From the NCBI GenBank assembly GCA_022821365.1, contig JAJEDS010000214.1, positions 1 through 40,314 on the forward strand: a stretch of 40,314 nucleotides of DNA, in the 5' to 3' direction. The notes beneath the pieces are model-generated. The model did not search any database and had not been told where the DNA came from. It worked only from the letters and a program-made list of their open reading frames with translations. This document shows positions 10,985 through 13,750 of this stretch, piece by piece. The stretch's first letter is position 1, and the number at the start of each line of letters is the position of its first letter. The stretch comes from Dehalococcoidia bacterium. GTDB lineage: Bacteria; Chloroflexota; Dehalococcoidia; Lucifugimonadales; UBA3495. The translations under genes and the position numbers were made by a program.

Positions 10985-11197
10985 ATGCCTGAAATGATTA
11001 ACCTGATGGTTAACGGCAAGACCAGGGAGGTGGAGGAAGCCACCAATCTGGAAACCTACCTGACCGCCTTCGGGCTGGACCTCCAATTTGTGGCCGTGGG
11101 CTACAACGGCGAGGTAATCAAGAAGGAGTCCTTCGCCCAGGTAACCCTGAGGAACGGGGACACCCTGGAAATTGTGCGCCCGGTGGGCGGCGGATGA
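10985..11197 (+). CDS. thiS: Sulfur carrier protein ThiS
   Basis: 70 aa ubiquitin-like protein ending in ...LEIVRPVGGG (C-terminal diglycine). Confidence 0.93.
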   Translation: MPEMINLMVNGKTREVEEATNLETYLTAFGLDLQFVAVGYNGEVIKKESFAQVTLRNGDTLEIVRPVGGG

Positions 11198-11430
11198 CCC
11201 AGCCCACTGAAAGCCTGGACGCCCTGCTGGTTGGAGTAATCAAGGACAACCGGGACAAGGTGGTGGGCTGGATAAACGAGGAACCCGGTAGCTGGGGCTT
11301 CCTGGCCGGCAGGGCCGTGCTGGCCTGCAAGGAACAAAAGGGAGCGCCCTTAACTGACCCGGAGCGCCGAATAGTCTGGCACCGTATGTGGGAACTGTTG
11401 ACCGTGCTGAGGGACCAAACAATCAAATAG
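11194..11430 (+). CDS. Small protein of unknown function translationally coupled to thiS
   Basis: 78 aa; ATGA overlap with the thiS stop. MTQPTESLDALLVGVIKDNRDKVVGWINEEPGSWGFLAGRAVLACKEQKGAPLTDPERRIVWHRMWELLTVLRDQTIK. Family not recognised. Confidence 0.65.
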   Translation: MTQPTESLDALLVGVIKDNRDKVVGWINEEPGSWGFLAGRAVLACKEQKGAPLTDPERRIVWHRMWELLTVLRDQTIK

Positions 11431-11462: not shown

Positions 11463-11488
11463 GAGGGGCGATACCGGCATCGCCCCTC
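11463..11488 (+). terminator. GC-rich hairpin, possible terminator of the thi operon
   Basis: GAGGGGCGAT-accggc-ATCGCCCCTC perfect 10-bp stem followed by TTCATTTTC. Confidence 0.5.
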
Positions 11489-11525: not shown

Positions 11526-12713
11526 GTGGAGACTCCAACTGCAACCAGAATCTGGCACGACCTGCATTACCGCCATACCGAGCCGGCCACCCACCCGAAA
11601 CTGTGGCGGCCCTTCATTGAGATCGACCCTTTCAATCCTCAGAACCGCGTGGCCGGCCACATCCAGTTCATCGGAGGCGACGAATACGGCGCGCTGGCAA
11701 TCTCCCACGTCAACGACCGGCCCGTCCCCCAGTTCATCAAGGTTACGCCCAAGGCGGCCTATCCCTTCCACAAGGACGGTTCCTGGGTGCTTCGCGGCGC
11801 GCAGGAGGTATCCTCCTTCGAGAAGATTGACGGCACCAACATCTGCCAGTACGGCTACCGGGACGCGGACGGCCGGCCCTTCACAACCTTCAAGCTGCGC
11901 ACCCGCCCTTTTATGTCGCCCCACTTCTTGAACCTGCTGGAACGCGCCCTCGCCGACTACCCCGCTGTCCGCGCTCACAATCTGAATCCCGGCGAGGCTG
12001 CGGCCTACGAACTGTTCGGATTCGAGAACCGTATGCTCATCCGCTACAACGTTGCCATCGGTCTGGCGCTGCTGTTCGGCAGAAATAAGGAGGGGGAACT
12101 GGTGGCGCCCCACGGGGCTGCCGGTATCTTCGAGGGACTGGACTGCCCGGTGGCAGACCGCCGTCCCATCGACTTGAAGGGGGACCTGGAGGGTGAATAC
12201 CGGGAACGGCAGCAGGACATCAGTTCCCGCCTGGTCCGCCTGGACGATGAGTATTTCGACGGCGAAGAGGGCGAGATGCTATACGTCCGGTTTGCCGACG
12301 GGTCGCGGGAGCAGCCGGGCGGCTTCACCCGCCTGATCAAGCTCAAACCGCCGGAAATCGAGGAAATTCACTGGGCCCTTGACCACGTTCCCCGGGAGGA
12401 GGCCGCCGCCGTGGCCCGCAACGTGTTTGAGGTCTCCGATACGCCGGAACTGGCCGATATGGTGCAGTTGCTCTCCGAGGAGTGGAGCGATGACCAGATT
12501 TCCCGTTCCCTCGACACCATCGAGCGAGTCCTGCAGGAGGCCGTCGAAAGGCGGGCCTTCCAGGAACAGGTGCTGGGCGTCTATGCCCAACTTCATGGCC
12601 CGGACGACTTTCGCCTGGACCGCCCCGCTGTCATGCGTTCCATGAGCCGGCGTTTCGCCAGGTCCCAGATGTCCAAGATTTACACCGTGCTGGTGGAACG
12701 GGGCTACGGCTGA
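11526..12713 (+). CDS. Putative RNA ligase (covalent nucleotidyltransferase superfamily)
   Basis: 395 aa. Candidate motif I FEKIDGTNICQYGY (K-x-D-G), motif Ia-like FKLRTRPF, motif III-like AYELFGFEN, motif IV-like GEEGEMLYVRFADG, motif V-like RLIKLKPPEI, then a helical C-terminal region (MSRRFARSQMSKIYTVLVERGYG). Confidence 0.75.
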   Translation: METPTATRIWHDLHYRHTEPATHPKLWRPFIEIDPFNPQNRVAGHIQFIGGDEYGALAISHVNDRPVPQFIKVTPKAAYPFHKDGSWVLRGAQEVSSFEKIDGTNICQYGYRDADGRPFTTFKLRTRPFMSPHFLNLLERALADYPAVRAHNLNPGEAAAYELFGFENRMLIRYNVAIGLALLFGRNKEGELVAPHGAAGIFEGLDCPVADRRPIDLKGDLEGEYRERQQDISSRLVRLDDEYFDGEEGEMLYVRFADGSREQPGGFTRLIKLKPPEIEEIHWALDHVPREEAAAVARNVFEVSDTPELADMVQLLSEEWSDDQISRSLDTIERVLQEAVERRAFQEQVLGVYAQLHGPDDFRLDRPAVMRSMSRRFARSQMSKIYTVLVERGYG

Positions 12714-12740
12714 CCCGGCCGCCCCGTATATTCTTTCCAA

Positions 12741-12812
12741 GAATAGGCACGAATGCTCACGAATGAGTTTACCTTGGGCGTAATTCTCATTAGCGGACAT
12801 TCGCGCCCATTC
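12741..12812. repeat. Imperfect inverted repeat of the 'TTCGTGG' intergenic repeat family
   Basis: gaataggcacgaatgctcacgaatgag (12741-12767) vs ctcattagcggacattcgcgcccattc (12786-12812) form imperfect 27-bp arms. 12788-12817 matches 13601-13630 closely. Confidence 0.6.
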
Positions 12813-12841: not shown

Positions 12842-13228
12842 CTAGTCCCTCTGCAGCAACTCTATGCGCACGTCGTCCGGCGCGCGCACGAAGGCCACGT
12901 GAACCCCGGGCCGGATTGTGCGAGGCTCCCGGGCCATATCCGCTCCCCGGCGCTTCAGTTCCGCCACCGTTTCCTCCAGGTTGTCGACGCGAAAGCCAAA
13001 GTGGTCCAGGCCCAGGTGCGGGTCCCGCGGACTGCCGGCCATGTCCTCATCCTCAGGCACCGCGGCAATGAACACCATCAACCCGTCAATGTCCAGGTCC
13101 ATGCGCTCGAACCCGTCAGACTGCACCGATTTGATAACCCGGGCATCGAACATTTTCTCAAAATACTCGGCCATCTCATCGGGCTTCTTGGTCCGCAGGT
13201 GAATGTGATCATACGTGTACTTTGGCAT
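12842..13228 (-). CDS. VOC (glyoxalase/bleomycin-resistance-like) superfamily protein
   Basis: 128 aa: MPKYTYDHIHLRTKKPDEMAEYFEKMFDARVI...HLGLDHFGFRVDNLEETVAELKRRGADM...VAFVRAPDDVRIELLQRD; VOC metal-site pattern (H..., H..F, E). Confidence 0.88.
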   Translation of the reverse strand: MPKYTYDHIHLRTKKPDEMAEYFEKMFDARVIKSVQSDGFERMDLDIDGLMVFIAAVPEDEDMAGSPRDPHLGLDHFGFRVDNLEETVAELKRRGADMAREPRTIRPGVHVAFVRAPDDVRIELLQRD

Positions 13229-13598: not shown

Positions 13599-13750
13599 CC
13601 CATTAGCGAACATTCGTGCCTGTTCGTGGAAAAATCAACAAGACGCGATTGCCTTGCATCAAGCCGGCGCATATTGAACTAACTCCCGCATTTCCCGCTA
13701 TAATATGCCCCAACGCTACCCCCATCCCAATCCCTATTCCTGGAGGATTC

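What the first reader, a model, noticed from the sequence alone, without database searches (positions are those of the whole stretch)
11526..12713. RNA-ligase-like nucleotidyltransferase encoded just after the thiamine operon
Seen: FEKIDGTNICQYGY gives the K-x-D-G adenylation motif, followed in the expected order by FKLRTRPF, AYELFGFEN, GEEGEMLYVRFADG and RLIKLKPPEI, candidate motifs Ia, III, IV and V of the covalent nucleotidyltransferase (RNA/DNA ligase, capping enzyme) superfamily. Spacing and the helical C-terminal tail resemble T4 Rnl2/Rnl5-type RNA ligases. No phage genes and no partner RNA-repair enzymes (PNKP, Hen1, RtcB, archease) were seen nearby, so its substrate is unknown. Inference: a chromosomal RNA repair or RNA-modifying ligase of an uncharacterised subfamily.
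Basis: partly seen in the sequence, partly recalled or inferred. Interest (0 to 1): 0.7.

Follow-up and report, generated by a model that had tools for sequence, protein, structure and literature searches.

The report
Phage-associated Rnl1-like RNA ligase gene
An uncultured Chloroflexota bacterium carries, next to its vitamin B1 genes, a gene for an RNA-joining enzyme whose catalytic part is a distant cousin of phage T4 RNA ligase 1 and whose wider family lives mostly in uncultured phages, so it is probably a phage-type RNA-repair tool kept by the bacterium.

Summary
11526-12713 (+) is a real 395-codon gene with a strong Shine-Dalgarno, under purifying selection (dN/dS 0.19 against a 77% homologue). 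The window protein alone matches no Pfam, PHROG, NCBIfam or PDB entry by sequence. A 39-member family was assembled from 7 Chloroflexota genomes and about 30 IMG/VR viral contigs. In it K76, K100xDG, K123xR125, E162, E248G and K272xK274 are invariant, and 12 of 20 scanned members touch Pfam RNA_ligase. AlphaFold plus Foldseek place it with T4 Rnl1, fungal Trl1 and archaeal Rnl3. Profile comparison gives 97.6% probability with Rnl1 but 1% with Rnl2 (reversed or shuffled controls below 0.5%). The helical C-terminal domain matches nothing solved and is not detectably Rnl1's. Relatives sit beside RlaP, a CCA-adding enzyme, tRNA genes or restriction genes. Most likely: an ATP-dependent 5'-P/3'-OH RNA ligase of an unannotated Rnl1-like subfamily, phage-associated and kept as a single gene, probably sealing broken tRNA. 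Ligase class is well supported; tRNA substrate and phage-to-cell direction are inferred.

The parts
11526..12713 (+). Rnl1-like RNA ligase gene, 395 aa
11513..11522 (+). Shine-Dalgarno GGGGAGGTGA before the GTG start
   Evidence: sequence
11751..11753 (+). K76 codon, invariant Lys 24 residues before the motif I Lys (T4 Rnl1 K75 lies 24 residues before K99)
11823..11840 (+). motif I KIDGTN (K100, predicted AMP-accepting lysine)
11892..11900 (+). motif Ia K123-L-R125
12009..12029 (+). motif III E162-L-F-G165-F-E-N168
   Evidence: aligned with the T4 Rnl1 E159 region
12267..12272 (+). motif IV E248-G249
12339..12347 (+). motif V K272-L-K274
12351..12710 (+). family-specific all-helical C-terminal domain (residues 276-395)
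   Evidence: pLDDT 92.4; no PDB match at E<1
10985..11197 (+). thiS, end of the thiamine gene cluster upstream (context)
   Evidence: compared with relatives
11194..11430 (+). 78-aa ORF overlapping the thiS stop, no Pfam match; conserved in same-genus genomes (context)
11463..11488 (.). hairpin between the thiamine cluster and the ligase, followed by TTCATTTT on the + strand (terminator-like)
12842..13228 (-). VOC-type (glyoxalase-like, by eye) gene that follows the 78-aa ORF in same-genus genomes lacking the ligase (empty-site flank)

Best explanation
The gene encodes an ATP-dependent 5'-3' polynucleotide ligase of an unannotated Rnl1-like subfamily, whose other known members are mostly in phage contigs. 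Expected chemistry (inferred from the superfamily, not shown): K100 attacks ATP to form lysyl-AMP; K76, K123/R125, E162, E248, K272 and K274 bind ATP and metal; AMP is passed to a 5'-phosphate RNA end; a 3'-OH attacks to seal. The helical C-terminal domain takes the place of T4 Rnl1's tRNA-specificity domain and probably selects the RNA. Most likely role: resealing tRNAs (or other structured RNA) cut by a ribotoxin or anticodon nuclease. Phages would use it against host defence; in this bacterium a retained copy works as a stand-alone gene, with end-healing supplied from elsewhere. Shown: gene, family, fold class, catalytic residue conservation, selection. Inferred: activity, end chemistry, tRNA substrate, direction of transfer. 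The confidence given is for a 5'-P/3'-OH RNA ligase of Rnl1-like type; for the tRNA-repair role alone I would say 0.5.
For: Invariant catalytic set over 39 members. AF2 model pLDDT 86.5, best PDB matches T4 Rnl1 3.1e-9, Trl1 4.1e-9, archaeal Rnl3 4.3e-8; viral library dominated by RNA ligases. hhalign family versus 10 Rnl1s: 97.6%, E 4.7e-12, motifs I, III, IV, V in register; catalytic part alone 97.3%; Rnl2 1.0%; reversed 0.09%, shuffled at most 0.4%. Members hit Pfam RNA_ligase (best 3.1e-5) and phrog_562/548 RNA ligase (best 6.4e-8 / 2e-4). Context: RlaP overlaps the ligase in L031 and lies 4 kb away in L011; CCA-adding enzyme adjacent in L015; tRNA genes in 11 of 25 viral loci; GmrSD and HsdM_N neighbours in L028. 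Tree: L010 and L007 group with viral rows (94/94, 97/99), the window clade sits among viral rows. dN/dS 0.19. Rnl1/RlaP/CCA roles in phage repair: PMC7824862; helical CTD of T4 Rnl1 confers tRNA specificity: PMC6592678.
Against: The window protein alone has no profile hit. TM-scores to Rnl1 are modest (about 0.40-0.45) and no model coordinates were available to check the pocket. Rnl1's N-terminal Arg (T4 R54, from memory) has no evident counterpart, and the CTD is not detectably Rnl1's (5.7%). No repair partner adjoins the gene in the window, G007 or G016. tRNA arrays and RlaP are common in large phages and RlaP occurs in 3 of 14 control genomes, so context is suggestive only. No biochemistry.
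Confidence: 0.8

Rival explanations
1. It is an RNA ligase but its substrate is not broken tRNA: the unusual C-terminal domain directs it to another RNA (rRNA, mRNA, small-RNA circularisation), as a housekeeping or stress function.
For: CTD matches nothing solved and not Rnl1's CTD; the window gene is stand-alone with no repair partner; an archaeal ATP-dependent ligase circularises C/D box sRNA (PMC9014305, abstract) and archaeal ligases rank high.
Against: Viral relatives lie by tRNA genes and a CCA-adding enzyme; very patchy distribution, 3 of 250 genomes in the order, is odd for housekeeping.
Confidence: 0.3
2. It is a member of the Rnl2/Rnl5 nick-sealing group, or a DNA ligase.
For: Shared superfamily motifs; EKIDGTN resembles T4 Rnl2's EKIHGTN (aligned).
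Against: Rnl2 profile probability 1.0% versus 97.6% for Rnl1; Naegleria ligase and DNA ligases rank far lower.
Confidence: 0.06
3. A decaying phage-derived remnant with no present function.
For: Relatives mostly viral; gene absent from four same-genus genomes.
Against: Intact ORF, all catalytic residues, dN/dS 0.19, GC and GC3 like neighbours; same position after thiS in another genus.
Confidence: 0.06

Closest known systems
T4 RNA ligase 1 (Rnl1, gp63)
   Same: Catalytic domain by profile (97.6%) and fold; motif order; motif I Lys at 99/100; a conserved Lys 24 residues upstream; length 374/395; helical C-terminal domain
   Different: N-terminal segment and C-terminal domain not detectably homologous; no PF09511 or PF09414 hit over cut-off; no adjacent PNKP
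Fungal tRNA ligase Trl1, LIG domain
   Same: Second-best fold match (4.1e-9); adenylyltransferase plus all-helical CTD
   Different: No fused kinase/CPD domains; the CTD alone does not match any solved CTD
Archaeal homodimeric Rnl3-type ligases
   Same: Fold match 4.3e-8 to 1e-5
PHROG 562 / 548 'RNA ligase' and Pfam PF09414 RNA_ligase
   Same: Several relatives of the window protein match
   Different: Window protein itself does not; the L022 match is 24.3 bits against a cut-off of 27
RLIG1 / C12orf29
   Same: KxDG 5'-3' RNA ligase with the superfamily motifs (PMC11494293)
   Different: RLIG1 lacks the C-terminal RNA-binding domain; only the Yasminevirus protein appears, low,

Membership tests
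Covalent nucleotidyltransferase superfamily | Motifs I (KxDG), Ia, III, IIIa, IV, V in order, conserved across homologues | tested here: met
Covalent nucleotidyltransferase superfamily | Adenylyltransferase fold | tested here: met
   top matches are RNA ligases
Rnl1 family | Catalytic domain profile similarity above other RNA ligase families | tested here: met
   Rnl1 97.6%, Rnl2 1.0%, controls at most 0.4%; Rnl3 and Rnl5 profiles were not available
Rnl1 family | Conserved Lys 24 residues upstream of motif I (T4 K75) | tested here: met
   K76 invariant, spacing 24 in the window protein
Rnl1 family | N-terminal essential Arg (T4 R54, from memory) and KFFN signature | tested here: not met
   TPKxxYPF in place of KFFN; no invariant Arg upstream; N-terminal segment hhalign 0.3%
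Rnl1 family | T4 Rnl1-type helical C-terminal domain | tested here: not met
   helical, but profile 5.7% and no PDB match at E<1 for the domain alone
Rnl1 family | Pfam PF09511 / PF09414 over curated cut-off | tested here: not met
Rnl2 family | Profile similarity to the T4 Rnl2 group | tested here: not met
Rnl3 (archaeal) | Dimerisation domain and profile similarity | not tested
   only whole-chain fold ranking
Rnl1-like tRNA repair system | Linked end-healing or end-restoring enzymes | tested here: inconclusive
   RlaP or CCA enzyme beside some relatives; none beside the window gene
5'-P/3'-OH RNA ligase | Enzyme-AMP formation and RNA sealing | not testable with these tools
   needs biochemistry

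The most novel reading that the evidence does not exclude
A separate class of phage and bacterial RNA ligase, defined by a previously unseen helical C-terminal domain that recognises its own kind of broken RNA, exchanged several times between phages and Chloroflexota chromosomes and used there as a stand-alone shield against ribotoxins.
Probability: 0.25. Interest if true: 0.65.

Novelty: new variant of a known kind. Interest (0 to 1): 0.45.

Why it matters
It adds a coherent, unannotated ligase subfamily that standard profiles miss, spread over uncultured phages and a few bacterial genomes. It gives a concrete test of whether bacteria keep phage-type RNA-repair ligases as immunity or self-repair genes. 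A ligase with a new RNA-selecting domain could also be a useful RNA tool.

Tried and rejected
Direct profile and PDB sequence searches with the window protein: nothing. PDB search with the A3 profile: only spurious hits such as ThreeFoil. tblastn of the window protein in named phages and plasmids: only spurious IS21-transposase matches at E 0.04-0.1. Members L007, L014 and L050 found nothing in named phages, L010 nothing in plasmids, and L008 only a weak (E 0.3) match to a Vibrio phage Rnl1. hhalign against single T4 sequences was uninformative; family profiles solved this. Rnl2/Rnl5 placement rejected. CTD fold search gave no significant match. PrrC/RloC-type ATPase (PF13166) and Pnkp/Hen1 ligase (PF16542) were not found in the own genome; PF16542 occurs only in G016, far from its Rnl1-like gene. 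An RtcB gene (partial match) exists elsewhere in the own genome, so this is unlikely to stand in for it. Kinase search PF13671 was too broad to interpret. The scan of named genomes outside Chloroflexota could not be repeated (cap), so cellular distribution beyond the phylum is unknown. The 2016 NAR survey of RNA repair systems was not in the library, so an earlier mention of this family cannot be excluded.

Full report
What is there. The ORF at 11526-12713 (+) is a genuine gene: 395 aa, GTG start with GGGGAGGTGA just upstream and an in-frame stop two codons before it. It follows thiG, thiE, thiS and a 78-aa ORF, from which a hairpin at 11463-11488 separates it. Downstream on the other strand is a VOC-type gene (12842-13228). 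GC (0.63) and GC3 (0.80) match its neighbours, and dN/dS against the 77% identical G007 copy is 0.19, so it is selected for function.

Family. The window protein alone matches nothing in Pfam, PHROGs, NCBIfam or PDB sequences. Relatives were found stepwise: two in the same bacterial family (77% and 52%; uncultured Dehalococcoidia MAGs), two at about 33% in the class, two more in the phylum, then 17 and 16 further IMG/VR viral contigs. Over 39 members K76, Y79, K100, D102, G103, K123, R125, E162, G165, N168, L183, E248, G249, K272, K274, L316 and E318 never vary. Twelve of 20 members scanned touch Pfam RNA_ligase (best 3.1e-5) and eight and three touch the PHROG RNA ligase families 548 and 562.

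Fold and class. AlphaFold2 on the 20-row alignment gives pLDDT 86.5. The best solved matches are T4 Rnl1, fungal Trl1 ligase domains and archaeal Rnl3-type ligases; the trypanosome editing ligase and the Naegleria ligase come later, DNA ligases and capping enzymes much later. The viral library returns RNA ligases. Profile-profile comparison with ten Rnl1 proteins gives 97.6% (E 4.7e-12) with the motifs in register; the catalytic part alone gives 97.3%; eight Rnl2 proteins give 1.0%; reversed and shuffled Rnl1 profiles give at most 0.4%. The N-terminal segment (0.3%) and C-terminal domain (5.7%) do not match Rnl1's by sequence. Folded alone with 31 relatives, the C-terminal domain is a confident helical bundle (pLDDT 92.4) with no significant solved match. 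T4 Rnl1 and Trl1 each carry their own all-helical C-terminal domain, T4's conferring specificity for tRNA repair (PMC6592678), so this looks like a third solution at the same position. It is therefore described as Rnl1-like, not filed as an Rnl1 member.

Context and history. In G483 a relative overlaps the gene for RlaP, the RNA-ligase-associated Pol-beta enzyme (role reviewed in PMC7824862). In viral contig L011 RlaP lies 4 kb away; in L015 the next gene is a CCA-adding enzyme; 11 of 25 viral loci hold tRNA genes near the ligase. In G479 the neighbours are GmrSD and a type I restriction HsdM fragment. The contigs carry phage genes such as a major head protein and replicative helicases. In the tree, chromosomal members fall among viral ones: L010 with L016/L039/L048 (94/94), L007 within a mostly viral group (97/99), the window trio as its own well-supported branch. 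This favours repeated exchange between phages and chromosomes; direction is not proven, and some chromosomal copies may lie in unrecognised mobile elements. Within the window's order the gene is rare (3 of 250 genomes). Same-genus genomes G002 and G004 have thiS, the 78-aa ORF and then the VOC gene with no ligase between, while G007 of another genus has the ligase in the same place after thiS, and ligase identity (77%, 52%) tracks ThiE identity (68%, 55%). An old acquisition with many losses, or later gain at a shared site, both fit.

Mechanism. By the established chemistry of this superfamily (PMC11494293; PMC3149579) K100 should take AMP from ATP, transfer it to a 5'-phosphate RNA end and seal a 3'-OH to it. 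R125 (motif Ia), E162 (motif III) and K272/K274 (motif V) correspond to residues that bind ribose and phosphate in Rnl2 and RLIG1. The likely job is sealing broken tRNA or another structured RNA, with the C-terminal domain choosing the substrate. In the bacterium the gene is alone, so end healing would have to come from elsewhere; no Pnkp/Hen1 ligase or PrrC-type nuclease was found in the own genome, which is 83% complete. All statements about activity are inference.

Verdict. A real, conserved, unannotated RNA ligase subfamily: a new variant of a known kind, moderate interest.

Noticed in passing
L049:7965-10160 (IMG/VR contig 3300018018_000001): This viral ligase carries a 343-aa LAGLIDADG-type intein inserted inside motif V, between K and C of KCKPEE (insert begins with C and ends with HN).
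   Followed up: partly
window:11194-11430: A 78-aa ORF overlapping the thiS stop codon, conserved after thiS in same-genus and same-family genomes, with no Pfam match.
   Followed up: partly
window:13457-13601: Two 56-nt direct repeats (95% identical, 89 nt apart) and a 32-nt inverted repeat (12734-12765 / 13601-13632) flank the VOC gene next to the ligase.
   Followed up: no
L028:11507-14278: A GmrSD-type restriction protein with DUF5655 and a truncated HsdM near a ligase relative, possibly a defence island.
   Followed up: partly
L036:53-598: A small HAD-like protein (by eye; phrog_420, unknown function) overlaps the start of a viral ligase member; it could be an end-healing phosphatase.
   Followed up: no
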